Source: Cruorifilaria tuberocauda | Taxonomy: Eukaryota > Nematoda > Chromadorea > Rhabditida > Onchocercidae | DNA: 64,000 nucleotides | Assembly (NCBI GenBank): GCA_013365365.1 | Contig: JABVXU010000201.1 | Coordinates: 32,555-96,554, forward strand | Direction: 5' to 3' | Part shown: positions 1 through 50,527 of the stretch, in pieces | How positions within the stretch are numbered: position 1 is the stretch's first letter | Layout: each line of letters opens with the position of its first letter | Made by a program: the position numbers and the translations under genes | The notes under the pieces: model-generated | What the model saw: the letters and a program-made list of their open reading frames with translations, nothing else | Database searches by the model: none | What the model was told of the DNA's origin: nothing

Positions 1-1018
1 ATTTGGTTTACGCAATAGTGAACTATTAAAACAAAATTTCAAAAAATAGCTGTAAATGAGATGAATGAAGAAACAACAATGTGGTTATTATCAATGCTTA
101 TTAAAGCTTAATATTACGTTTAAAGAAGAAAAGAAACTTCGAGCCATTTTCACAATGACATAAAAGAAAATATTCCAATCTACTCTAAACTACTTTGGAA
201 GGATTTAGGAACCCCATGAGCTGCTCCCATTTGTTTTTTATATCAATAGCGCTTCAATGGATAACGTAAATTAGTAAAGAGGATATAAGACGGATGACTG
301 TAGCTCTGCCACTTTGTTAGGTATGTGTTCAGTCTCGTAGTAATGTAAATCTTACTACAAATGAATGTTTAAAATTTGTAATGATGATTTAACCATGACT
401 TTAAAAGGAGATCTCGCATTTTGGACTCTAGTGTTTTTGCAATGCTCTGAAAACAAAATCTAGACATTTTTAGTAAATTAATTTTAATTTGTTAAAGTTT
501 CCTAAGCATCTACATCAATAATACACAAGCGAAGTCGTTCATAACAACGAGGTTGACAGTAATCGAGTACTGATGTGATACTTACAAAACAAGGAAACAT
601 TAATCACAAAATTGAAGCGTACATGAAAAAAAGGTTGACTCAAAAAGATGACTACAAAACAATGATAAATTTTCCTGTCAAAGGCAGATGTCATCAACTT
701 GGTTAAGTGGGCCGAGCTTCGTGACAAATTGATGATAGCTGGGGAAAGCACAACAGATTCAATTTTCAACTGAAAAATAACTGTTCAAACTAAAACGGTT
801 CCTCCATATTTTACTTCCAACTTCTGTTTAAAATTTCAACTCTATATCTATAGAAACTTTATTTTTAAATGAATCATAATTAAAGAAGGTTAATAAAAGA
901 TGGCTACGAGCTCAGCGTCAATAATTATGTCAGCATATTTATGATTATTTTAATTTCCTACGAGATAAATTAAGGAGAAAATCCTAATTCTAAATCCATA
1001 TACCTGAGTTAGAGTAAT
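1..1018. other. 3' flank of the Y-box gene, no further gene seen
   Basis: This AT-rich stretch lies downstream of the minus-strand Y-box gene. A minus-strand AATAAA at 858-863, about 155 bases past the stop codon at 1019, is a reasonable polyadenylation signal. Short ORFs here, such as 539-769 on the minus strand, lack splice-bounded structure or recognisable domains. I found no other gene. Confidence 0.5.
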
Positions 1019-2451
1019 TTATTGTTCAGATGATTTTATATCTGGACGCTCATTTTCTTTGCTTTCGCCATCAGAAGTCGGATGAATATTGTTTTCGGCT
1101 TCACCATTCATGACATCAACATTGCGGGCCCCTCGACGACCCCTGCCTAAAATTTATACATCAGGTACATGTATTTCTTCTCATATTTTCGTACCACTTT
1201 TTAATTCGGAAAATGAAGTGAAAAAATCTGTACCTCCACGACCACGTCCGCGGCCGGTTTTTCGTGTAACGTTTTCACCACCTAACTGGTCCTCTCCTGT
1301 GGCCTCGTGATCCCCTTCCGATGCACGACGACGCTGTCCACCACGACCACGTCCTCGTCCACGGCCACGCCCGCGTCCACGACTACGGAACCCCCCACGT
1401 CCTCGTCTCCCGCCCTAAAAATATCTTTCTGTCTTAAACAGAAAATATAACCAGTTCCATTTCAATTAAAACTACCCATTTATCATGTTCTACATTTTTT
1501 TATTGAATGCATAGCATGAATATTGATCTATTCCGAATTTCTCGAATTCCTCACTTCATCAATATCGCCACTTTCACCATCAGCTCTATCACCTTCAGAG
1601 TTTGCACGTCTCGCTCCACCTCTACCCGGCCGGTAAGCACCGTAATAGAAACGCCGACGATAAGCTCGTCCTCTTCCTCGCATGTCGCTTTTATCAGCTG
1701 CATATCTCGAGCCTTCTACGTTACCACCATTTGGACCGGTAACATTTGCTGCTTCCGGGCCTTTTTGTCCCTCTACCACATCAAATTCCACCTAAATAAA
1801 GATGATTTAATCTTATTCTGGTTTCATCACCGAATAACGTCATCGACTTGAATTATGCTTACTTTTAATATGCAAAGTATTAAAACTATCAAATAATCCT
1901 ACAGTGATAGCTCGTTGCTAACGAAAGTCTTACTATCCTCTATCATTACAGAATTTACTGATTCAAAAGACTATAAAAATAAATGAATAAACACACTTTT
2001 TCGCCATCGCCTAGTGATCTCAAATACTTGTTTGGATTGTTCTTCGTAACAGCCGTTTGATGAACGAAGATGTCATCGCCTGTATCAGCGCGGTTTATGA
2101 ACCCATAGCCGTTCTTGACGTTGAACCTCAAAAATCCCATAACATATAAATGCAATAATAAGAAATATAATGAAAGGAACGACCAATGTAATAACCCTAA
2201 ATTCTAACATGCAATTTAAGCGTGCTCACCACTTAACGGTGCCCTGTATGTGACGTGCAACGATTCTCTTGCCGTCAATGTGGTTTTCGTCATTCAAGGG
2301 CGTTTCAATCTTCGGCTGCTCGTAATGGCCCTCCGGCTTCTGCAACATAATTAATCTCTGACTAGATCGGAGTGAACAAAAACTATTCCTCAAAATATCA
2401 TGAAATTTACTTTGTTGAAATGAAAGTACTTACGTTGTTGGTTTCAGCCAT
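1019..2451 (-). CDS. Y-box / cold-shock-domain RNA-binding protein (CEY family)
   Basis: Six exons on the minus strand: 2434-2451, 2230-2339, 1997-2126, 1555-1791, 1234-1414 and 1019-1146. All have GT-AG ends and matching phases, giving 267 residues from the ATG at 2449-2451. The cold-shock domain spans roughly residues 37-112: [17 protein letters not shown] carries RNP1 (NGYGFI), [10 protein letters not shown] carries RNP2 (IFVHQ), and [19 protein letters not shown] completes it. The C-terminal part is rich in Arg-Gly and Gly (about residues 125-225), with a second RG block before an acidic tail. Family knowledge: Y-box proteins bind mRNA in cytoplasmic mRNPs and control translation and stability; RG tails add RNA or protein contacts. 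The frame stays open upstream of the chosen ATG to an acceptor at 2506-2508, so the first coding exon may be 2434-2505 and an earlier start may exist. Identity is secure; the exact start is not. Confidence 0.93.
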
Positions 2452-7755: not shown

Positions 7756-8559
7756 ATATATAAATATGAAACATGCAAGCATGCAAGATAAAAGGGCAAA
7801 TGCTCACATAATTGTAGCATAGGATTTTGAAAGCAATAAAATAAATTCATGTAAGGCAGAAATGAATAAACGAGAAGAATGATTGATATTCAAGAACGGA
7901 ACAGAATAACATGCAAAATTTTTAAAAATGAAAAAAAAATATAATGCTTTAGCAAAATTTTGTTCGATATCATCCACTCATTCTAAATAATCTCTCACTT
8001 CCCATTATTGATTCTCTATATTGGAGAATCCATTTAGAGATTTCGGAAAACTGGAATTCCTTTCTAAATATTTTCCAGAAGTTTAAAATGAAAACTGGAA
8101 GATCTTTTTTTTTAAATAAATGATACATGAAGGTTTTAGTTAGCAGATTTGTTATGTAAAAATTACACTAATCTTTAAAATATTCAAAAGTGCTTTTTTA
8201 TTTCAGACATATTCCCACTCTGCTATTCTTCTTTTCCGTTCTTTTCTTTCCGTAATACTCAACAGATGAGAGCACAAAAGAGAAAAGAAAAAAGAAGAAA
8301 TAGAAGCGATTAAACTTGAACAAAAAAAAACAAAACAAAGAAAAGTAATTGAATTAAACAATTTAAAATCACATTTTTTCTTTTTCAACAAAATATGAAA
8401 TTTTATCTCTGGTAAAATTTTCCTATTTTCCGGATTAGATTGTAAATAATATTGAAAATTTTAGAAATATAAAATAAAAAGATTACCTACCTCAGACCGC
8501 GATATAGTTGAATTTGATAGTCCTATGATTTCTAAATTTGATCTGCCAAATGAAAGTGA

Positions 8560-11500: not shown

Positions 11501-14500
11501 ATTAAATTATTGAATATTTTGAAGTGTTATAGTTGAGGAGATATTTTAAAAGTTATTGAGCATTAAGTATTATTTAATATTGTGTCATAGATTATAGATT
11601 ACTTTTTTCGATCAATGAAAATAATCATCTAATTTACAATTTTATTTGAAAGAAAAAATCAAATAAAAAAATTTTATGAGTTATTTTATGAAATTAACAA
11701 GTATTTTTATCTAAGATATTAAAATTATAAACACAAACATATTGATTAGTTGCGAAATTTTCATCAAATGTTGTTATTCATAAATAACCAAATGTCGATC
11801 AAGTATTAATAAATAACCAAGTATTGATCAAATATTAATAAATAGTTAATTATTGATTAAATAATGATAAATAATTTGTGATTAATGAAGTCAGCTTACA
11901 TTTTCACTGTTTTTTCCGCAAAGATAGCCATAATTTCGAATGCTACAGTCAGCAAATTTATCCATACTTCTGAAATCAAAAGAATAAAACATAGTATAAA
12001 AAAATAATGGATTACTCTTAATTATTCTTTTCTGCTAAAGTTAGGTTTTTAGAAGTTTTTAAAAGTTTGAAAAAATCTTTCGTTCACAATTTAAGAAGAA
12101 TAACTTACTTTTTTGTTTATTTACAAATCATTATTTATTCAAATTGCAAAATGCTCATAGTTTTCTGTAAAAATTAAGAATTTAAACTAATCAATAACTG
12201 AATAGACTAATTCACAATTCTATTTTTGTAATAGCATAATTAAGAATTAACTAATTATACTATTTAAAATGCAATTCAAGAATTCAAGAACTAACGTGCA
12301 TACTCTCTGAAGAGCTGTTGGTGACACATTCATTGCTAGAAATTTGATTCGTTCACGTAACTCATAACTTTGTTTACGACAGTTTGACGTCAAATTGTTA
12401 ATATTCACTCGCCAACACGGAAATTGTGCTTGCAGTACTAAAATTTATTTATTTCTTTACTTATTAATTATTTCATTTATCAATTTAGTTTTTTTCCAAA
12501 TTCATTTTTCGATTTTATTTGTTTATTCATTTTTCTTCTCTAACTTATTCGTTATTTCTCTTTGGGTAATTATTATTCATTTTTGCTTCACTAGAGAAAC
12601 TAAATTACTGAAGAATAGCGAAATATATAAATTGAAATTTATGTGAATGATAAGTTTGATAGTGATAAAACTGATAAGTTCCAACTGAAAGCAAAAATTT
12701 CTTGACTATGATTACGACTATTTTTTTAACAATTTTAATACAATTCTCGCATATTGCAGTTGATGAAATTAAGCTGAATTCTAATTAGTTTTTTTATAAA
12801 TTTCGTTAAATTGAATTTAAATTTAAAAGGAAAACATAACGAATTTTAAAAGGAAAATTTCCGGCAATCAAATTTTATTTTCGAATAATAAGAAAAAATG
12901 TTTTACATGGATTATTTTGATTTTTTTTAAATCTTTTAATAAATTCTATTCAATGAATTTGAAATTCAGTAATTCAGTTTGATGGTTATTCTGGTCAATC
13001 AATTTTAGAGCACAAAATGGAATTTAAACTTTCCAATAACTTCGAATATTACAACAACTATTATTTGAAAATAAACCTAAAATTCAAATATTCGAAATAA
13101 ATTAAACAAATCAATCAATAAAAATCTATTTGTTATTTCATATATTTTAATCCAAAATTGTTTTTTTTTAATAAATGAAAACAATTAGCTTTTATTGATC
13201 AAGAATTCATGGCTTAATAAATTTCAGTCGAATAAAAAATTTTCATAATTTAGAAAGTTCAAATTCATTCAGAAATATAACTGATGGAAAGATCAATCTC
13301 AATTAGCTTTTACCAACAAAAAGAATTCATGGATTAATAAATTTCAGTAAAATAAAAAAATTTCACAATTTAAAAAGTTCAACTTTCAATTTTATATGGA
13401 ATATAAACAATTACCATGTAAATTCAAACATATTTCTCGCCACGGTAAAAGTCCCAATTCCAAAATTTTTCGTTCATTTGTTTTATTACAACGAGCAAGA
13501 CATTCAAGCAATAAATCATTACTCCTAAAAATTATTCCACAATTATTTATCTCGCTTTTCTGAAAAAAAAAAAAACAAAACGAATTATTTAAAATAAAAA
13601 TTCATTTTGAATTTAATTATAATCTTAAACTGAAACAAAATTTTTTCATTTTATAAAAGAAATTATTGAAAAATCAAAAATCATTTAAAAGAAAAAAATG
13701 ACGCGAAAAAAAAAACTCTTTGAGAAAGTCCCTTAAAGTAACAAGAGTAATTTTTTTTGTCTTTTTTTTTTCGTCATCAAGAATTTTTTCCATTTCAAAA
13801 AAAAAAGTGCCATCACTAATAGCGCAATTTACACCAGAGCATCAATCACTCATTAGATAAGATAATCGTTAATCATCACTAATCCATGCTCCACTCTGAA
13901 CTCGAACGTTAATCCGATTTTATGAATGCGACGGCATAAGTGCTTCGTCAATTTCAGTGCAAATCATCAAAGATGCTATCCGATTGATCATAAATCATTA
14001 ACACACTTGTTATCATTGATGTGATAGATGGAATTTATATTACACTAATAAATATTTACTCACTTATAGCTAAATATTTTTCTTTTTTAAATTTTAAGTT
14101 TAATAAATTGAAAAATTTCAAGTGAAATAAAACAGATACGATTATTTTGATCTTTTTCTTATCATTATTATTCTTTTATTATTAGTAATTCAAATAAAAA
14201 GAAAAAACAGTTAAATAATTTTAAAAATTGTTATCCGATAAATGCTCAAATTTTTAATTTCTTTTTTAATATTTGAAAATTTGAAAAAATTCGCTGATAA
14301 GATTAATTTGAAAAATATGAGATTTATTAATTCGAATAACTTTAACCGTATCATTCATGTCTTAGATATATTTTATCAGTAATATAGGATTGCTTATCAA
14401 AGTTTCATTTTTTTATACATTTAGAAAAAGTGGAACATTTTTATTTGTGAAAAATTAACGAAATAAATTAATTCTAACGAATATTTCACATTTTATAAAG

Positions 14501-36545: not shown

Positions 36546-39500
36546 ATGTATAGTTATCATCCGTCGACGTCTGATAAAAATTGCCAATCTTTAAATAGCC
36601 GACGAATTAAAGTATATCATTTATTTATTCTATGAATTTTTTTTCTTCAGTTCCTTGTCGTTGTCGTTGCTAGATGATTCTTTTTTTTTCCTTAATTTGT
36701 AAACCGAAATAATTTAATCGTTGTTATTATCATAGATATTTGAAAAACATCAAGCAAGTATCTGTTATATGATAACTGTATTGATAACTTAAATGAATTA
36801 CACATTACTTATATTCTTACTTTTATGCAACAGTTAAGATGAATTGCTTTGATACTTTCCTTTATATAGAGTGAATACCTATATACTTTTATAAATACAT
36901 AATTATAGGATGAAACACATTTTCTATCTAAACGCAATGAATTCGTAAAGAATTTATCACGTAAAAATGGTTCGTTTATATTTTGTTGTTAAATCAAATT
37001 TAAATTGTGAATTGAAATTTTTGTTATTAAATAGAAATTCAACAACTTAGTTCCATTTTGAAATTTAAATTAGTAAATATTATTAAAGTTTGGAAAAATA
37101 AAGAAATAATTTTTGGATGTATTATTATCGATGTAATTTTAAGTTAAGTTGATTTTTAAAACTTTATATTAATAATTAATTGTTCACTCGTGAAATTTTT
37201 TTACCACTACTGAATTCTTAGTAAACAAATTACTAAAACTATAAAACAAACAACCATCTAAGAGATTAATAATTAAGGAAGAAAAAAAATCATTGCTTTA
37301 AATTGTTTGATCAATCGAATGAATTTCCAAATACTCATTTGAGAATTTCCCGAAGCACAATGTACTGATGAAGCTGTCATCAATTTTAATCATTTATTTT
37401 ACAATTCCTATCTTCCTCTTTTCTACTTTAATTTGATGAATTGATTATTTCATTATTTTTCGAGAACTTTTTCAGAAGAGTCGAAAAAGTTACATGCTGA
37501 ATTAAGTATGCTAAATTCTTCGTCCGTCCCAGCCTTTCAAGTAAATATCTTTCATATTTTAATTTAATTTAATATGTATTTCACTTAAGGAATTCGAAAT
37601 CATTAAAATAATTTCTAATAAAAATTTCATATGAAGTTAGAAATCACTTGATTTCATTATTTATAAATGTTAGATCAGAAGTTATGATTGAAAATACTAT
37701 TTCAAGATTGAATTAATTGACAGTATTGATAAGAAATATTTACAATTGTAAACTGATTACTTATCATACATAATTTTTTAGCGCGGTGTAGATGTCCCAG
37801 TATCAAGGCCATTATTAGCAAATGAAAATCAACTGACTTTAACGGGTACAATCGGTAATTATCATTTATAATTTCATTCCTAATTTGAAATTCATAAAGT
37901 AAAACAATTAAATGATCATATTACGTTTTGTAAAATCATTTTTATTATTTCGAAAATATTTTATAATATTTATTTATAAAATGAGCAATACAGGGAAATG
38001 AGAAAGAACCGAAACTTAGTTGATACTTAATTCGTTACAATAATTTAAATTTTACTGATATCTTTCTTGGAATAGATCGTTAGATATCTTTGTTCCACCG
38101 ATTTTATCAGTACTTTTCATGTAGTTCGTTTTATTTTAGTCTGACTTGGACTCTTGTTACCTTAGTTACCTTAGTCACCTACTTAAAGCAAGATAATAAA
38201 AAAAGCAATTAGAGATTAAACAATTTTCAGCTAATATCTCGAATGTGAATTCACGGATATGTAAACGGAAAGCTTTAAAACTGCGAAATGGCGTGACAGA
38301 GAGTGGACAACTCATTGACACGTCTAAAAAGAACGGAAATAATGTTAACAGAGAAATTTTGAAAGAACAAATTAACGATCGAAAGGATCAGATTAAGTGG
38401 AATGAAAATTTCACATTTGGTCTAAGAAACTCCGGAATTTGGAATGGAAATGAGAGGGAAATTGAACAGCGCAAAAGAATTGATTTGGGTCAACAAGGTC
38501 ATGATGAAGCAACAGATGCAATTTTACATGGAATTAAATGGAATGAAAACGCCACGATCGGTTCAGGATGTTATGAAATGTGGAATGGTATCGGACGAAA
38601 AGTTAAACAGAATGGAAGCATCAATTGCAGTGAATGTAATGATCATGATGAAGGATCATGTGAAACTTTACGTCGGATTAATCGGAATGGAGACTTACGG
38701 ACTGATCATAAAGAACCGGATGAAAGTGATCTTAAAGTTAAGCGGAAAAAGAACATCTTCAGAAGTTTGGAATTATACAGAAATGGAGGTAGGATCATTA
38801 CGAATAGAGGTGATGAAGAGCGGGATGGAAGTGAAACCAAATGGTACGTAAACGCTCGCAAAGGTCAAGGCTGTGATGCAAAATCAGATGAGGATGGAGT
38901 TGGAACTAAATGCAGTGGAAGTATCCTCAGGGGCCAAGGTGATATTAATGGACTGGTTAGGTATGAAAGTGAAATCAAAAGGAACGGGCATGTTGCGGAT
39001 GGAAATGAAGGTAAAGTTGAATGCAGCAGAAATGACCTGGTAAATCAAAATCACATTGAAAAAACTGATAGAAATAGAAGTCAAGGAAGTGGAAGCAAGG
39101 GCCAACAGAATAAAAATAAAATCCAACAAGACGGAAACAGAATTCAGCAAAATCCAGATCGAATTCAACAGAACCCAAATGGAATTCAACAGAAGCCAAA
39201 TGGAATTCAACAGAATCCAAGTGGAACTCAACAGAATCCGAATGAAATGCAGCAGAATCCAAGTGGAACTCGACGGAGTGGAAGTAGAATTCAACGAAAT
39301 AGAAATAGAATTCGACAGATTCCAAACGTAATTCAACAGAATCCGAATGAGATGCAGGAAAATCCAAATGGAATGCAACAGAATCTAGGTGAAATTCAAC
39401 AGAATCCAAGTGAAATTCAACAGAATCGAAATGGAATTCAACGAATTGGAAATGCTCCAAAACATCAAGTCCCACAAAACTGTTTTCCGCGGAAAACAAA

Positions 39501-42500
39501 AACCTTAGGGCTTCTTTGCCGAAAGTTTGTTTTAATGATCAATCAATTCCAACTTCTTTATCAAATTATATATTATTTAAAGATAACGTTAAGTTAGTTT
39601 TCTTTTAGTGTTTTTAGGTAAATATTCGTCATATTTCGATAATTTTCTCGATCATTTTATTTTTTACAATATTTAAACTTTATATTTTCTTTATTTTTTC
39701 ATTTACAATTTTTTCTTGTTATTAATTCATTCATTCTTCATTTGAATTTTCTAATCCGATCTTTATATAATTTATCTAAGGAGGAAAAAGAAAGTGAAGG
39801 AAATAGAGAAAATTGTAATTTGTTTTTTCGATTGAATTATTTTAAATTTAAAAATAAAATTATTTTGATTTTAATTTAGTTTTGAATTAATTCTTTTATA
39901 TCAATACAATATGTCTTTATAAAAAAACACGAAAGTATAAATTCTTTTTAAATATAATTTTTGCAGCTTTCAGTTCTCAGTAATTTCATTTTCAGATTTT
40001 TGCTGCAAGTACTTGAGTATATCGATTGTGGAGATAATCAAATCAATCTTGAAATAATCGCATCTTCTATGAGTACGTTTAAAAATTAAAAAAGAAATTA
40101 AAAACTGTAATTTAAGTTAACATTATTCGATATATTTTTACTCTTCGTAAAATTTAAAAATTTAATGTAATACTTTCTTTGCATTATCATATTAACAAAT
40201 GCTAATTGAAGTAGAATTTACAAAGACGTACAAAGTTTTCTGCACAGTTTTGAACTTTGTTTAATGTTAAGATAATCTGAGATGCTAAGGAGTTTGACTT
40301 GAATTGAAATAAATTTAATTTCAGAGGTTGAGAAGCGTCGTATCTACGATGTTGTAAACGTTATGGAAGCTCTCGGTGCTATGGAAAAATCACATAAAAG
40401 TTTCTATATGTGGAAAGGATTGGATAATTTACCATCTATACTTTATAATCTTAAGGTATAAATAACTTACATTTTTTTAGTGATAACAAACTTTAACTGG
40501 AAGGTATTTACTTTAATCAACATATCTTACTGTCACTTCTTTCTTTTTTAGCTGTTGCAAAAATTCTTCAAGCAAAAAGATACTAATGAAATACAATCTT
40601 TCCACGAACTTATCATGCATTTCTCCTTCTTATCAATGATAATAGTTGATAATCAATGATAAAAGTACCGCCAATAAAATAATGTTAAGGAATTAAATGT
40701 ATTTGGAAAAATGAAGTACGATTGAATTTTTTTAAAGTATGCCTTCAAAATTGTAGAAAATGATTTAAAAAATTTGTCAAAATGTTTCATGGTTGTAAAA
40801 ATATTCAAATATTCCTAACTTTAAATTAAAAAAAAAAACGAAAAATTAAGAAAAGATTTTTTCTTTCTGAAATTTCGAGATTTGTATTTTAGATGGAAGC
40901 AGAGGAAGAAAATATTTATCAAAAAGTTTTAACAACACAACATATGATGACACGATTTATGGAAATAACTGATATGGACGAAAACGGTTTCACTTAAATT
41001 AATATTCAAGATTTTCTCAAAAAAAAAAAAAAATAAATTACTACGAAAAGATTAATTTGTAAGTTTGAATTGTAGGAAAATTTTAATTGAATTTATATAA
41101 TGTTAACTTAGTGATAGAATAACATTCCATACACCTAAATCATGATTAATTAAATAATTTATTAGACTCTGTAAGTGTTCAAAAGCCAATAACTCAATAT
41201 TGAGTGTTAAGAATCTTTAGATGGTGCGAGTTCATCACAGACATCTGATGATAATGATAATGATATTAACGTTACGGAACAATTAAACTCACCGGGAAAT
41301 AGCGGTAACGGAAGTTCAAAGAAGATCGAAAGCAAACGTCAACGTGGCTTAAATTCTCTAACATATCTATGCAAATATTTTTTCAAAATTTTACTCGCCG
41401 GATTGGTTAGTTCCTTTTTATTTCCATCAGTAACGGTGCTATCCTCAAGTTATCCGTGAAATAATGAGAGGGCGGTATAAGTGAACGAAATGATATTCAT
41501 ATTAATTAAATTAAACAAGTCGGATGTCACATAATTAATAGTAAATATATTAATATTACATAATTAATATTAATTAATATCGAAATTAATATTCTTTTAG
41601 TTTTTTAAAATTTTCATAGATAAATGAATAAAAAAAAGTGAATAAAAAATATTACTGGTGATTTTTCGAACATTTGTAGGATTATGAAGCTGATTATAAG
41701 GTAAGTTTGGATGTTGCAAGTACCATGCTAATTAAGGATCCCGATATTGATGGTTGTAAGCCGCCAGATCGCAGTAAGTTTTTTTCCCCTTATTAATAAA
41801 ATTACTTTTCTTAAAATTCCTTTTTGTTGAAAAATTATATGATAAAAAGAAATGGAACAGTCTTAGAGCATTGCAATTAAAGATTTGAATTAAAATAAAC
41901 TTTAGTTGAAAAGTATTAGTTACCATAAATTTATAACGATCCACTAAATTTATTCAATTTATAATTAATTTATTAGGTCGATGTCGACGAATCTACGATG
42001 TTGCAAATGTTTTAATTTCATTAGGACTAGTTGAACGTAAAATGTTTACTTTCGGGACGAAAAAAATTCCACTCTTCCTCTACTGTGGTCCTGAAATTAC
42101 CGGTAAAATTTCCTCAATCAATTCATTTTCTTTCAATCAACTATTATTTCATCGTAATATTTCCAGTATAAAAGAAGAAATATTTTGTGGAATATTTTCA
42201 GAAAACGGTAAATTTGATTTCTTCCATCATATTCGCTTCAATAAGCTATCGATAGATATGAAAAATTCAGAAGAAAAAAAGGCATATGAGGTGGAAGAGG
42301 AAAATTTGGAATCTTTCTTCCTCAAAAAGTAATTACTTGTTTTGTTCTTAAAATGATTTTAAAGAACATTTCATCTCTACTACGCCTGCTATTTTCATTT
42401 CAAAAAGAAAAAAAAGGTAAATGAAGTGGAATAAATATAATTTAACATTTTTAGAATTTATGAAAATGTTTATACGCTATAAATTTGCTTTACAGTATTA

Positions 42501-43625
42501 CTCGACAATAACAAAAATTTTTTTCTTTAGAAATAATAAGAAAAATCAAGCAGCTGAATCATCCGATAGCACTGATGAACCACCTGAGAAAAAAAGACGG
42601 ATTGAAGAAACAGTTCAGGTACTAATTCAGGAAAATGCAAATGTGGAAAAGGAAAATGTTCCGGTCGCTGTGGTAAATCGGATCATTCAATCAACCCAAC
42701 TACCTATGACTCTTCCAATTATACGGCCTCAACCACAGGTAAATTAGCTTCAAGTTTTATTTCTGAATGTAAAATTTTAGATCGTATTAAATTCAAGTTT
42801 CACTTTCTTCCAAATTTTTCCAATATTATTTTTAACAATTTTGTTTGCTTGCATATTTTTATAATATTTTATATGTTTGTCTTTTTACTTCATTATATTT
42901 CTTAAGTAAAACAATAAACGAACGACATCATGCCCTAATTATATATTTAGGTATAAACTTATCGAATACATATTCATTGCTCCAAGTTTACCATCACGAC
43001 CTTTTATTGAACTTTAACCTCTGAAATGAAATAATTAGATTCAATTGATTTATGTTATTTTAATCGCTTGAGATATTATATTGAGAGAGAAATAAACACT
43101 TTTTTAGAATTATTTAAAATTTTAGAATTATTAAAATAATCTTACACCCATTGATCGATTCTTAAGTTTAAACTTAAAAATTTTTTCATTGTTACTTCAT
43201 TGAGGTTTTTTTTTTTGCAGAAAACTGCTGATTTAGCATCAGTTTTTACTCCTCGAACTTTCGCACCTTTCAACGATTTTCAATCATTTATTCAACAGCA
43301 ACCAACAACAATAACCCAATTTATGCAATCACCAATTTACTCACAAAGATTTTTACCATTCGATCCAAGTATGATCCATTTGAATAACGGACATATGCTT
43401 CACAATACCGCTTCGTCACGGATCATGCGACAAAACAGTTTTAATTATCCACCTATTCCTTATTCGTTATCGTCAATGTCTTTCTTCCAACAATTATATG
43501 GTCCATTAGGTGATAACGGAAATATAAACTATCCGGCTTACATCAATACTATCAACAATTCTATCCATCCATCAATAATTTCAAGATCTTCAACATTTAG
43601 CATCGATTCAATATTAGGTTTATAA
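36546..43625 (+). CDS. efl-3: Atypical E2F transcription factor (E2F7/8 class)
   Basis: Fourteen exons: 36546-36611, 37481-37540, 37782-37854, 38231-39524, 39996-40072, 40325-40455, 40552-40644, 40893-40986, 41221-41405, 41680-41773, 41977-42102, 42202-42328, 42531-42738 and 43221-43625. They total 3033 bases (1010 residues). Two winged-helix DNA-binding domains define the class. The first runs from KTKTLGLLCRKFLLQVLEYI through INLEIIASSM to VEKRRIYDVVNVMEALG. The second runs from RGLNSLTYLCKYFFKILLAG through VSLDVASTMLIKD to CRRIYDVANVLISLGL. Each has its RRxYD DNA-contact motif. No DP-dimerisation or Rb-binding region is seen, as expected for E2F7/8, which repress cell-cycle genes without DP. 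A basic PPEKKRRIEE motif after the second domain is a likely nuclear signal. Exon 4 adds about 430 residues of repeats before domain 1. The start, the second-exon acceptor (37480 versus 37475) and the exon at 40552-40644 are the weakest parts. Confidence 0.93.
37321..37360 (-). repeat. Right arm of a 40-bp perfect inverted repeat
   Basis: Exact reverse complement of 31201-31240, lying about 115 bases upstream of the exon with acceptor at 37475-37480 of the E2F-like gene. See the left arm. Confidence 0.9.
39113..39450 (+). repeat. 21-nt coding tandem repeat (IQQNPNG-type heptads) inside the E2F exon
   Basis: About 16 degenerate copies of a seven-residue unit, I/M-Q-Q-N-P-N/S-G/E, are encoded by a 21-nt repeat with the core 'aattcaacagaatcc'. 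It forms the end of the repetitive insertion, immediately before the first DNA-binding domain. Because the period is a multiple of three, antisense and other frames also stay open here; I treat those as shadows. Confidence 0.9.
42103..42201 (+). other. 99-nt in-frame intron, possible exitron
   Basis: This segment has a GTAAAA donor and a TTTTCAG acceptor, is exactly 33 codons long and contains no in-frame stop. Splicing it out or keeping it both leave the E2F reading frame intact, just after the second DNA-binding domain. The intron-like T-rich ends favour removal in the main transcript. Confidence 0.5.
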
Positions 43626-43798: not shown

Positions 43799-43954
43799 AA
43801 TAATTATCAGAGCCCATATTATCCACCGGGATACTTACCATAGCTTATTCTGCTCAGTAGAATAATTATCAGAGCCCATATTATCTACCGGGATACTTAC
43901 CATAGCTTATTCTGCTCAGTAGAATAATTATCAGAGTTCACATTGTCCACCGTA
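43799..43954. repeat. 62-bp tandem repeat, 2.5 copies
   Basis: Copies at 43799-43860 and 43861-43922 differ at a single base. A third, partial and diverged copy runs to about 43954. The unit begins aataattatcagagcccata. No coding frame was seen. Confidence 0.9.
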
Positions 43955-44660
43955 ACATGTTTACATGTGCTATTAATAGCATCTCTTTCAAAATCTAGAC
44001 TTCCGTTCTTAATTCTTGTGAATAGAAAATACTGTACAAAATTATCAGAACGTCAATCAAATTCTCCCTTCAAATTTTTGTGATTTTTTAAAAAACTTTT
44101 TTTAGGTGCAAAAATTGATAGAAATGACGGTTATGTATATTATTTTATTGTACAGTATTTTGTATCATATTTATATATTCCAAAATATTTATATATTTCA
44201 ATTGTTTCCTTATACATTTCCTAATTTCTGTAACATTTCATTATGTTACAGATATATTTTATTTTACTTCATTTCACCTAGATTACTACCACTTAGCTTA
44301 CTATCTTATCTTCTAAAATGGTGTCATATCTTGTGATGCTATTTCATCGGTGATCCATTCAGAATTACTTTCCAATTTTATTGTTAGTAACTTTGAGTTA
44401 CTTTTAAATTTCACTGGTGATTTACTCAGTGACTCCTATACAAGCGTCTGATTACTTAATTGTCGGGTGAAATGTTTATCATTTATTTTATAGAATTACC
44501 AATTGATATATTTAACTTTATCTAATTTAATAATTGAAACAGCAAAAATCGATTTAGAGAAGATTTATTGATAATTCATTATCATTTATTAGTACCATAG
44601 CAGCTAAAGTCGACTGCATAGATAGGTTTAGAGGCAATAATCTATACCGTTCGATTGATA

Positions 44661-44722
44661 GTCTATACCGGTCCGATCAATCTATACCACAGTCTATACC
44701 GGTCCGATCAATCTATACCACT
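44661..44722. repeat. 31-bp tandem repeat, two near-perfect copies plus a decayed one
   Basis: Copies at 44661-44691 and 44692-44722, unit core tctataccggtccgatcaat. A diverged third copy precedes them at about 44641-44660. Confidence 0.88.
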
Positions 44723-45149: not shown

Positions 45150-45410
45150 AAAACAAATAGCCAAATATTTTTGGACAAAAGCGTATTCATAGGCTTTTTT
45201 TTACAATTGGGAGCGCAAACTATCTATCTAGTTGTGAGTTTGACTATTACAAACATGAACAAAAATTTTTTTTGGACCTTTTAAAACATGGGTTTGCTAT
45301 CGAAAAGAGTTATGGATTAATTGGGATCCAACAAACCAGACAGTACTTGCAAATGAACAGGTAGTTAATGGAAAGGGATAGCGCTCAGGTGCAGTCGTTG
45401 AAAATTCATA
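45150..45410 (+). pseudogene. leuS: Fragment of a bacterial (Wolbachia-like) leucyl-tRNA synthetase gene
   Basis: Conceptual reading in shifting frames gives pieces of bacterial LeuRS in the correct order: FFYNWERKLS (about 45196-45225); then [20 protein letters not shown] (45230-45289); then [20 protein letters not shown] (45307-45366); then NGKG, a TAG stop at 45379-45381 where Trp is expected, and RSGAVVE. In bacterial LeuRS this is the catalytic-core stretch around 'YYKHEQ...[16 protein letters not shown]...GWRSG'. At least two frameshifts and one nonsense change show that it is dead. The fragment covers well under a fifth of the usual gene. The best inference is a nuclear insertion of endosymbiont DNA (nuwt); a mitochondrial-type nuclear LARS2 copy is less likely but not excluded. 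No other bacterial gene piece was recognised nearby. Confidence 0.75.
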
Positions 45411-46600
45411 GGATTTTGCTAAATTAGCCGTTATCAATTCATTTCAACCAAATCATTTCCCTAATTCCTAAATGGGTGTTTGGATATCTTCACAGAGTAA
45501 TTAGCTTGTGTGTATATGATATAAAAATTCAAAAACGATTGTTAAGTATTAATTTTTTAAAGTCTATAAAATAGTTAAAAGTTTTAAGAAACAAAAATGA
45601 ATTTCAGGGAAAGAAATGCAAAATTATCAGAATTAAGTAATTTAATTTGGGAATTTGATAACGTATCAGCGCATGCATAGGCGACAAATTATTATTAGTA
45701 AACAATAATATATGAAATAATAAGAAGAGATTGTAAAAAGCATACTTGTTAATGAGTTAAAAATTTGGATTGAAACAAAATTACTGAAACAAAAATAAAT
45801 TGGCAAAATATCGCGTGTATTGGGAAAGTAAAGAGAGTTGGGCTGATTTGTATTTGTGGTACAATTATCGTGAACTTTGATTAGACTGAATTGGGGGATG
45901 ATTTTATGAAGGTTGAATTTGGTAAAAAAGGTTTCCTTATCGTGAATTTTGAATCAGGCCGAATTAGAGATCGTTTAGTGTAGGACGATTTTGGTGGAAA
46001 ATTTCTTGCACAGAGATTTATAGTACTGTAGTACTGTAGTACAAGAAGAATGGAATAATAGTTTTATTTCTGTGAAACAACAATGAAATAACACAATACC
46101 TATCACTACTAACATGACCTTTTATAAATAAAATTTTGGAAAGAGGAGATTAACAAAAATAGGAATGTTTGAATTAGTTATCTGAGACAAAGAAAAGCAC
46201 TGAAATGCAAATTATCTGTGAGAAAATAGAAACGGACAAACGGGAACACAGAACAATTTCTATAAAACAGTTTTCATAATGAAGATATCCAGTACAGGTA
46301 CCAGTAAAAACATCTTACATTTTACAAATAATGATTCATAAAAAGCAAAGATTCAAGAATTTAATAAAAATTAATTTCGAGAAATCTGAAAAAGAGAAAA
46401 ACTATCATGAGGTAGGAATTTAGGTTGCTGTACATCATTTCATCATCTATAGAATTAACAATTATTTTTATGTGGTTTCGGGTTTTCATCGACATTCTCA
46501 AGAAAGAATGTCGTGAAAATTTGATTTGGGAAGTTTTTTCATTTGGTTAGATTCACGGACAATTTAAAACTGTGTCGATGAAATCAAGAAGAAGAGGAAG
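45411..46600. other. Non-coding sequence after the leuS relic
   Basis: No gene was seen. There is a weak imperfect duplication (about 45865-45915 versus 45940-45990, both starting 'tatcgtgaa') and a short 'tagtactg' triplet repeat near 46020-46042. Whether the endosymbiont-derived segment extends into here could not be judged by eye. Confidence 0.35.
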
Positions 46601-46609
46601 GATGATGAA

Positions 46610-48455
46610 ATCCTTTGTTCTGGATTTGATATTGTAAGCTAAATGTATGCTTGTGATTTTACAAGCTTTGTTAAGGAAATCCTTTGTTCTTAAATTTAAA
46701 ATTATATACATTTGATTGGTCATGATCCTCCCTCCTCCAGAATAAAGAAGTACCAAACTATGAAGCATTGGAAAGGTTTGGTTTCAAGGAGGGTGGCGGC
46801 TTAAGGAAAGGATATAGCGATTACCCCATTCCCTTGTCTGACTGAATATCGTTTTTTAATACTTGGCTGGATATTTTAGAAAAATTTAATGTGTTAATGT
46901 CGTGTTATTGTATGCTATGAAATCTAAAGTAATAAAGGTTTAATTACCCAAGTTTGAGGTACACAAAAGTATCAACTATCACGGAAGCTAGCAATTTGCT
47001 TACTTACGAATAGAAAGAAAGATTATCACGGTCAAAGAAGATCGTCGACAATAACAGGAAAGAAAGAAAGAACACTAGAAAGGAACAACTTAAATCTTGC
47101 CGCGGTTGAAGGAAATCCCCGACAAATTGTGGTGCATTCGAGAAACGTTCGCTTTTTGTTACAAGTAATATGATCAATGGTTATCTTTCATCTCTCAAAC
47201 ACTTCTGAGAGAATCAGAATGCTATCAAACATGAAATCACACTTCTTGTTCTGCTAAGAAGCAGAACTGTCCACAAATTTTAAACCATATCAGACGGTCC
47301 AAAGTTATCTCAAACCGGGCTCCTTCGTACTTATGTAATTGGACTGTATTCAATAATACGGGTAGCTTTGGAAAACAAAAAGTGATGACTATAAAACCTG
47401 GGATTCCCAGGCCATCTTCGACCAAGTACTAAAGCAGGCTCAACGTTGCTTAACTTGACAGATCGAATGAGATGACGTACTTTCATGATCGTAGATATGT
47501 GTTTGCACAAACGTAACAAACACGTTCACAAAATCTTTATCATATAGTAAAAGGACGTAAGACTTGAAAGACTGTTTGGCACACTCGACTTGATCGCTTG
47601 AAGAAGAGGTTTAGCAGAACTGATTGAAATTGCAATAATTGATCGATCACTGATTGTTTTTTCACGTGAAAGATTCTGATGGATGCTTCTCGTTGATCGT
47701 TGATAGTCGCTGTTATAACGTTGTAACGCTTACTATTACTTCTTGATTTGAACGTTCAACGTGGAGTTTTGTCCTGAGATTAACCATATTTGTTTCTTTG
47801 AGTTAGACGGAGGTCAACTTTTTTGCTTGCGGGAAAAGTTAATCGGTCCTTTGGATAAATAAACACAGAAAGGTTGTGAGGTCATCACTGCATGAAACTG
47901 ATAGTGAGCAAAGAATTATCTAAATATATCTTGGATGAAGTTGATACTAACATGGACTCATTGAGGCGCCCTTATTAAACTAACAATCAATGCGTGATTG
48001 TGTACTATTCGATGACTGATAGCGTTATCGTTTTTGAAACTCTTCAGAATTGATAATGTTGTACTATCAAGTTTGTTCTAATAAAGGTTCATTATCCAAG
48101 TAAAAGCAAGAAAGAACACTGTCAGTATTGTCACCCTCACAGAAGAACGTTGACAGTTCTTGAATTAACATTGTAAGTTAAAATTGTATGTCCTTTGTTT
48201 CAATCTCTGAATTTTACCATGATCCTCCCTCCACCAGAACAACGAGAGCCAAGCACCACAAGCATTTCTAAGGATTAGCTTCAAAGCTGCTTGACGAAAG
48301 AGTGAAATAGTTTCTCTCTCCCTTTGTCTTACTCATATTGTCTTTAAATTGTCAGTTAAAACTCTCCTTGATATGCCGAATTGATAATGCTAATGTTGTG
48401 CTATTATATATTATCAAATCTGTCGCATAAAGGTTTAATTACCCAAGTTTGAAGT
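46610..48455. mobile_element. Diverged direct repeats, LTR-like; probable retroelement remnant
   Basis: Two homologous blocks of roughly 240-330 bp lie 1.5 kb apart: about 46610-46960 and 48165-48455. They share, in order, 'ttgtaag.taaa', 'cctttgtt', 'catgatcctccctcc', a diverged middle, and 'aaaggtttaattacccaagt'. A third copy of only the right-hand end is at about 48045-48105. The first block has AATAAA shortly before its shared terminus, as a retroviral-type LTR would. The interior has higher GC than its flanks but no intact gag or pol could be read. Element class is unknown. Confidence 0.4.
47966..48014 (+). repeat. 49-bp dispersed repeat, copy 1
   Basis: Matches 49575-49623 at 46 of 49 positions and begins gcgcccttattaaactaaca. 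Copy 2 ends at the candidate start codon of the zinc-finger relic. Confidence 0.85.
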
Positions 48456-49623: not shown

Positions 49624-50527
49624 CTAATTCATTCAGAGAAACATTCTTCTTTAAGCAAACTTTCAAAGAGTAAACGACGTGATTTCAATAAGCAACCATT
49701 TACTGTATTGGTAAATTCAGATATATTTGAAAATCGGCAAGAGGTCGAATCCATCGATATGTATTTTATCTATTTATCCATCCTCTTCTTTCACATAAAC
49801 ATCCAAATTATAGTAAGTTATTCATTAAACATTTCAAAAAGTTAACATTTCGATGACTTCAAACTTTCAGTGTTAGCTGAGACGAATAATTCTATTTAAG
49901 GAATCACAAACGGAAGAAACCGAACCGTTAGATTTATCGATGCCACAACTGAATCATGAACAAACCAAATCACAGGATTCATTAATTAAAGAAGCGGATA
50001 AAGAGCCGTCGAATTTATCAGTCGAAGGACCGAATGCTGATATTTGTCAAAACCAAATACGGAAATTGAAAAAACATAGGAGAATTCATGTCGCTAAAAG
50101 GCCGTATAACTACTGTTCGAGATGCAAGAAAAGTCTCTCTACTCTATCGAATTTGAGAAAGCGTATGAAGCACACCGGTGAAAAGCTGTACAATTGTTCG
50201 GAATGTGAGAAAAGATTCTTCCGATTATGGGATTTGAAGACTCATATGCAGAGCCATACCGGTGTAAAGCCATACAATTGTTCGGCGTGCAAGAAAAGTT
50301 ACGCTTACTCATCAAGTTTAAAAACTCCTATGAAGATCCACGCAAGTAAAAAGCCGTACAGTTGTTCAATATGCGGAAAAAGTTTCTTCCATAAGTATCA
50401 TTTAAAAAATCACATAAATATTCATAACAAACTTTTCAACTGTCCTACTTGTAAGCACAAACACTCCCATCAGAATACATTTTGAAATCACATAAGAAGA
50501 AATCCCATACTGAAAATGGACACAGCT
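49621..50527 (+). pseudogene. Decaying multi-C2H2 zinc-finger protein with PLDLS motif
   Basis: A first exon at 49621-49743 (MLIHSEKHSSLSKLSKSKRR...) may splice, phase 0, to 49901 onward, where the frame begins ESQTEETEPLDLSMP. PLDLS matches the PxDLS motif by which repressors recruit CtBP. About five fingers follow. Finger 1 (CSRC...) lacks its first His. Finger 2 (CSECEKRFFRLWDLKTHMQS) is complete. Finger 3 (CSAC...LKTPMKIH) has Pro for the first His. Finger 4 (CSICGKSFFHKYHLKNHINI) is complete. Finger 5 is cut by a stop at 50483-50485; a +1 shift restores LKSHKKKSHTENGHS and a stop near 50527. The lost ligands and the frameshift point to a pseudogene or a very recently damaged DNA-binding protein. 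A strain polymorphism or sequencing error could explain the last frameshift alone, but not the lost His residues. Confidence 0.65.

What the first reader, a model, noticed from the sequence alone, without database searches (positions are those of the whole stretch)
45150..45410. Decayed Wolbachia-like leuS fragment in a nematode chromosome
The ordered motifs [38 protein letters not shown] and RSGAVVE are those of bacterial leucyl-tRNA synthetase. They are interrupted by two frameshifts and a Trp-to-stop change. This is direct evidence of old bacterial DNA in an animal gene desert, and it implies past or present endosymbiosis.
Basis: partly seen in the sequence, partly recalled or inferred. Interest (0 to 1): 0.75.

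Follow-up and report, generated by a model that had tools for sequence, protein, structure and literature searches.

The report
Decayed Wolbachia leuS fragment, filarial nematode
A short, broken copy of a bacterial gene from the worm's Wolbachia symbiont sits in the worm's nuclear DNA, a genomic fossil of a kind that is real but already well known in this group of nematodes.

Summary
Window 45185-45404 aligns to bases 321-536 of an intact Wolbachia leuS on another contig of the same assembly: 189 of 221 columns identical, E 6.8e-64. It does not match the host's own bacterial-type LeuRS gene (inferred LARS2) beyond chance in DNA. Live-symbiont contamination is unlikely: it is 14% diverged, disabled, and lies in nuclear surroundings; no reads were available. 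It is placed beside the live symbiont; 11 of 17 placements are rejected, and the six kept are all on or in the C/J clade. Of 13 substitutions assigned to it, 11 are at codon positions 1-2: neutral decay. It is a NUWT (nuclear Wolbachia transfer), now inert. Two 10 kb Wolbachia stretches gave 19 matching pieces outside their contig. NUWTs are well documented in filariae (PMC12693587, PMC3849323). 'Gene desert' is not supported. New member of a known kind; low interest.

The parts
45185..45404 (+). NUWT: decayed fragment of Wolbachia leuS (gene bases 321-536, about 72 of 850 codons)
   Evidence: 189 of 221 columns identical to leuS on C145, E 6.8e-64; nhmmer 1.4e-53; placement
45194..45194 (+). 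+1 insertion in a T-rich run (frameshift); place depends on the alignment
   Evidence: one search puts it at 45197
45220..45223 (+). +4 insertion (frameshift); place depends on the alignment
   Evidence: one search puts it at 45226-45229
45296..45297 (+). 1-base deletion between these bases (frameshift)
45379..45381 (+). TGG to TAG, Trp to stop
   Evidence: site 45380: A, against G in the live gene and in 8 of 8 other strains
45164..45181 (+). possible further 5' leuS remnant, not established
   Evidence: equalled by 21 of 500 dinucleotide shuffles
41937..42329 (+). upstream neighbour: E2F-type winged-helix exon, 2.9 kb away; further open frames at 42421-42744 and 43155-43622 may belong to the same gene (inferred; the latter has no Pfam match, the former was not scanned)
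   Evidence: PF02319 E 7.9e-07; E2F8 4yo2 E 0.00088; frames
46566..47138 (.). interspersed repeat 1.2 kb downstream, matched on 36 other contigs
   Evidence: 51 matches listed, one the locus itself, one C145 leuS, 49 within this stretch; 40 of 231 candidates scored

Best explanation
It is a NUWT: a piece of leuS from the ancestral Wolbachia of this worm's lineage that was inserted into the nuclear genome and has since decayed neutrally. Shown: Wolbachia leuS identity, closest to the live symbiont of the same assembly; disabling mutations; nuclear surroundings. Inferred: DNA of the germline-resident symbiont was captured during repair of a chromosome break, was never used as a synthetase gene, and lost its frame and ends by ordinary mutation. 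It does nothing as a gene now.
For: 86% nt identity to leuS on the symbiont contig C145, against 74-81% for the eight other strains held locally. The tree with full genes groups it with the live copy (SH-aLRT 89.8, UFBoot 95); AU p 0.967, RELL 0.942, 11 of 17 placements rejected at p < 0.05. Of 13 substitutions polarised to the fragment 4, 7 and 2 are at codon positions 1, 2 and 3 and 10 are GC to AT; the live gene has 4, of which 3 at position 3. Three frameshifts and one stop over 215 aligned sites. An E2F-type exon and an interspersed repeat lie alongside. Two further decayed leuS pieces are on C422 and C123, and pieces of other Wolbachia DNA elsewhere.
Against: No reads were available, so the junctions rest on one assembly. 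The placement is not unique: six of 17 placements (the best one included), all on or within the C/J clade, stay above AU p 0.05 (the SH test drops three of these, p 0.0455-0.0456). The backbone of that test grouped wDcau with wOo inside supergroup C, unlike the 5 kb tree. The tree from the fragment's columns alone is poorly resolved (89.9/46 for the same grouping). No clean junction or target-site duplication was recognised.
Confidence: 0.94

Rival explanations
1. A pseudogene or exon of the host's own nuclear gene for mitochondrial leucyl-tRNA synthetase (LARS2).
For: A host gene of bacterial LeuRS type lies in several exons on C654 (41-63% protein identity to symbiont LeuRS; 40-67% in the better pieces, 30-31% in two gapped or stop-containing ones). 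That it is LARS2 is my inference.
Against: Fragment against that gene: best nucleotide match 16 bases, E 0.097; best translated match 16 residues, E 0.003; against 7.2e-65 for symbiont leuS, which lists no match on C654.
Confidence: 0.01
2. Assembly chimera or contamination from the live Wolbachia.
For: The assembly contains Wolbachia contigs.
Against: The fragment differs from the live gene in 32 of 221 columns and is disabled; a misjoined live read would be nearly identical. No comparable Wolbachia match was found in the flanks, in 20 kb against six Wolbachia genomes and in the whole window against C145, C897, part of C355 and eight loci.
Confidence: 0.02
3. A NUWT from a different, now lost Wolbachia: a stem or sister lineage of supergroups C and J rather than the ancestor of the present strain.
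For: Placements on the C/J stem, on wOo+wDcau+wDi, wOo+wDcau, wOo and wDcau are not rejected by the AU test (0.053-0.109). Symbiont replacement is reported in filariae (PMC12693587, abstract and Results).
Against: Identity to the live gene is 85.5%, against 80.9% for the next best strain, wDcau; the live-strain placement takes 0.942 of RELL support.
Confidence: 0.12
4. A co-opted element: the fragment is transcribed or regulates a neighbour such as the E2F-type gene.
For: Four transfers in Brugia malayi show stage-specific transcription (PMC3849323, abstract); an E2F-type exon is 2.9 kb away.
Against: 11 of 13 fragment-side changes are at codon positions 1-2, no open frame through it; no expression data were available.
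Confidence: 0.01

Closest known systems
NUWTs in 22 filarial genomes (Vancaester et al. 2025, PMC12693587; abstract, Results and data-collation sections read)
   Same: Decayed Wolbachia gene fragments in nuclear DNA, largely from the supergroup of the live symbiont where there is one; recognised by nucleotide HMMs and trees; those of C origin in Onchocerca average 434 bp.
   Different: Nothing in kind. This locus may be among their counted regions if the genome is one of their 22; the main text holds neither 'leucyl' nor 'leuS', and supplements could not be looked up.
Nuwts of Brugia malayi (Ioannidis et al. 2013, PMC3849323; abstract and passages seen)
   Same: Wolbachia genes and gene fragments in the nuclear genome, with junctions enriched in intergenic regions.
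   Different: Those retain high similarity to wBm and include 32 complete frames; four transfers show stage-specific transcription. This one is short, more diverged and broken.
Wolbachia fossils in Dictyocaulus viviparus (PMC4046930; search listing only)
   Same: Nuclear Wolbachia remnants as a record of symbiosis.
   Different: That host is a strongyloidean and, as I recall, has no live Wolbachia; here symbiont contigs are in the assembly.

Membership tests
NUWT (nuclear Wolbachia transfer) | Nucleotide similarity to a Wolbachia gene, placed within Wolbachia in a tree | tested here: met
NUWT (nuclear Wolbachia transfer) | Embedded in nuclear host DNA | tested here: met
   E2F-type exon, C2H2 frame and interspersed repeat in the same window; open-frame coverage 0.05 in the window against 0.70 on C145
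NUWT (nuclear Wolbachia transfer) | Distinct from the live symbiont sequence | tested here: met
   86% identity, three frameshifts, one stop; the gene on C145 is intact
NUWT (nuclear Wolbachia transfer) | Not a resident nuclear gene of bacterial type | tested here: met
   no DNA match beyond chance to the LeuRS gene on C654
NUWT (nuclear Wolbachia transfer) | Junctions confirmed by independent reads | not testable with these tools
   no reads held
Functional leucyl-tRNA synthetase gene | Intact reading frame over the catalytic domain | tested here: not met
   about 72 of 850 codons, three frameshifts, one stop

The most novel reading that the evidence does not exclude
The insert was made by a now extinct Wolbachia on the stem of, or sister to, the C/J clade, so that it records a symbiont older than the present one or replaced by it.
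Probability: 0.12. Interest if true: 0.4.

Novelty: new member of a known kind. Interest (0 to 1): 0.18.

Why it matters
It shows that reading raw sequence can pick out a 220-base decayed symbiont fragment in a nematode contig, and it adds one locus to the record of filarial-Wolbachia association. On its own it changes no view: such insertions are documented by the hundred in some filarial genomes (PMC12693587, Results).

Tried and rejected
LARS2 origin: tested and rejected. Live-symbiont contamination or misjoin: rejected on divergence and decay, though without reads. Extension of the homology 5' and 3': 21 of 500 and 329 of 500 shuffles reached the score, so not claimed. A loose alignment over 800 bases was too gappy to mean anything outside the core and was set aside. 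Other Wolbachia pieces in the window: matches of 45 bases at 8439-8483 (E 0.005) and 37 bases at 14059-14094 (E 9e-05), and of 42 and 25 bases at 40134-40175 and 45549-45573 (E 0.003 and 0.004), were not taken as NUWTs. C123 as a duplicate of this insertion: of 22 variable sites among 116 shared columns, one is a derived state shared by window and C123 alone, a second shared state (381) is also in six of eight other strains, and one site each joins C123 or the window with the live gene (495, 370); a separate transfer seems likelier but is not proven. Host name: no collection of eukaryote genomes is among the tools I used; a thymidylate synthase search meant for this was not carried further, and the name is inferred from published statistics. 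Paper searches; two searches found no paper.

Full report
What is there. The window is C224:32555-96554 of an assembly of 71.68 Mb in 1108 contigs. Bases 45185-45404 align to bases 321-536 of an intact 850-codon leuS on contig C145, 189 of 221 alignment columns identical; in the whole assembly this is a match of E 6.8e-64. A nucleotide HMM of 11 Wolbachia leuS genes finds it at E 1.4e-53. Breaks: +1 at 45194, +4 at 45220-45223, -1 at 45296/45297, and TGG to TAG at 45379-45381.

Where the live gene is. C145 is 132,537 bases, 32.6% GC, with 70% of its length in open frames of 150 codons or more, against 5% for the window. Its 10 kb around leuS match six Wolbachia genomes at 71-84%, in kept order within one stretch of about 9 kb in wOo, wDi and wDcau. 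A complete IleRS frame beside a miaB-like frame on C355 and a ValRS frame cut by the end of contig C897 point to the same symbiont; these names are my reading of the translations. So the assembly carries a present Wolbachia.

Which Wolbachia. In full leuS the live strain is 84.8% identical to wOo, 84.1% to wDi, 82.7% to wDcau and 80.7% to wLbr (12 other genes compared). In 5.3 kb around leuS it is 83.1%, 82.0% and 80.6% identical to wOo, wDi and wDcau and forms a clade with them at 100/100, its place inside that clade being uncertain (71.4/72). Supergroup letters are those of PMC12693587 (C for the Onchocerca and Dirofilaria strains, J for Dipetalonema, D for Litomosoides, F for Osmia). The fragment groups with the live strain (89.8/95; AU p 0.967, RELL 0.942). 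Of 17 placements 11 are rejected at AU p < 0.05, including those on the D and F strains, the outer ones and wDi alone; six are kept, all on or within the C/J clade. In that test's backbone wDcau fell beside wOo. The tree from the fragment's columns alone is poorly supported (89.9/46).

How it decayed. Fragment and live gene differ at 26 of 215 aligned sites. Using eight other strains, 13 changes belong to the fragment (4, 7, 2 at codon positions 1, 2, 3), 4 to the live gene (3 at position 3), at one site both differ from all others, and 8 are undecided. Ten of the 13 are GC to AT. This is the pattern of an unconstrained copy beside a gene under selection. Thirteen changes in 215 sites, 6%, would take about 20 million generations at a nematode mutation rate near 3e-9 per site and generation (rate recalled, so an order of magnitude only).

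Not LARS2. A host gene of bacterial LeuRS type is on C654, split over several exons, with 41-63% protein identity to the symbiont enzyme and 40-67% in the better pieces. The fragment has no nucleotide match there beyond chance (best 16 bases, E 0.097) and one 16-residue translated match (E 0.003). That this gene is LARS2 is inferred.

Surroundings. An E2F-type exon lies at 41937-42329 (PF02319, E 7.9e-07; E2F8 in the PDB, E 0.00088). Further open frames to 43622 may belong to it, but the last of them has no Pfam match and the middle one was not scanned. A C2H2 frame is at 49877-50482. A repeat at 46566-47138 gave 49 matches on 36 other contigs, with 40 of 231 candidates scored. ARAGORN found no tRNA gene in the window. 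The fragment thus seems to lie in an intergenic spacer of a nuclear contig, where NUWT junctions are enriched in Brugia malayi (PMC3849323, passage).

How common. Two 10 kb stretches of C145, of 14 stretches fetched, gave 8 and 11 matching pieces outside C145 at E <= 1e-8, 10 of the 19 at E <= 1e-30. The first count includes the three leuS pieces, the window's own among them. I did not check that each is decayed and nuclear. If the two stretches are typical, a 0.86 Mb symbiont would give about 800 pieces, the same order as the 483-653 regions reported for hosts of supergroup C (PMC12693587, Results).

Which worm. Inference only. The assembly of Cruorifilaria tuberocauda has 75,522,022 bases in 1888 contigs; its symbiont wCtub has 32.3% GC, is 81% identical to wDcau and 83% to its nearest strain, wOv (PMC8116671, passages). 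The assembly held here lacks 780 contigs and 3.84 Mb relative to that, 4.9 kb on average, as if contigs under about 10 kb had been left out; the smallest contig length I saw is 10,026 bases. GC 32.6% for C145 and identities of 80.6% to wDcau and 83.1% to wOo fit. Against it: the J host Dipetalonema caudispina is given only 74 NUWT regions, far fewer than the estimate above, though by another method; and I do not know whether the published assembly keeps Wolbachia contigs. A relative with a similar symbiont would fit too.

Verdict. It is a NUWT, apparently one of many, in a filarial genome that still has its Wolbachia.

Noticed in passing
L098 (C422:1-5000), 971-1203, minus strand; L099 (C123:5000-10026), 2530-2650: Two more decayed leuS pieces on other contigs, 77% and 74% identical to the live gene.
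   Followed up: partly
window 46566-47138: Interspersed repeat of about 560 bases, matches of 72-94% identity on 36 other contigs; short matches recur about 1.5 kb further on at 48218-48245 and 48427-48455. Not identified.
   Followed up: partly
window 43799-43952 and 44660-44721: Minisatellites: 62-base unit, 2.5 copies, and 31-base unit, two identical copies.
   Followed up: no
window 38200-39594, plus strand: 465-codon open frame with a run of imperfect IQQNPNGIQQ-type repeats; no Pfam match.
   Followed up: no
window 49877-50482, plus strand: Single open frame with several C2H2 zinc fingers.
   Followed up: partly
G000 contigs C145, C355, C897: Contigs of a live Wolbachia of the C/J area within the nematode assembly (placement tested for C145 only).
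   Followed up: partly
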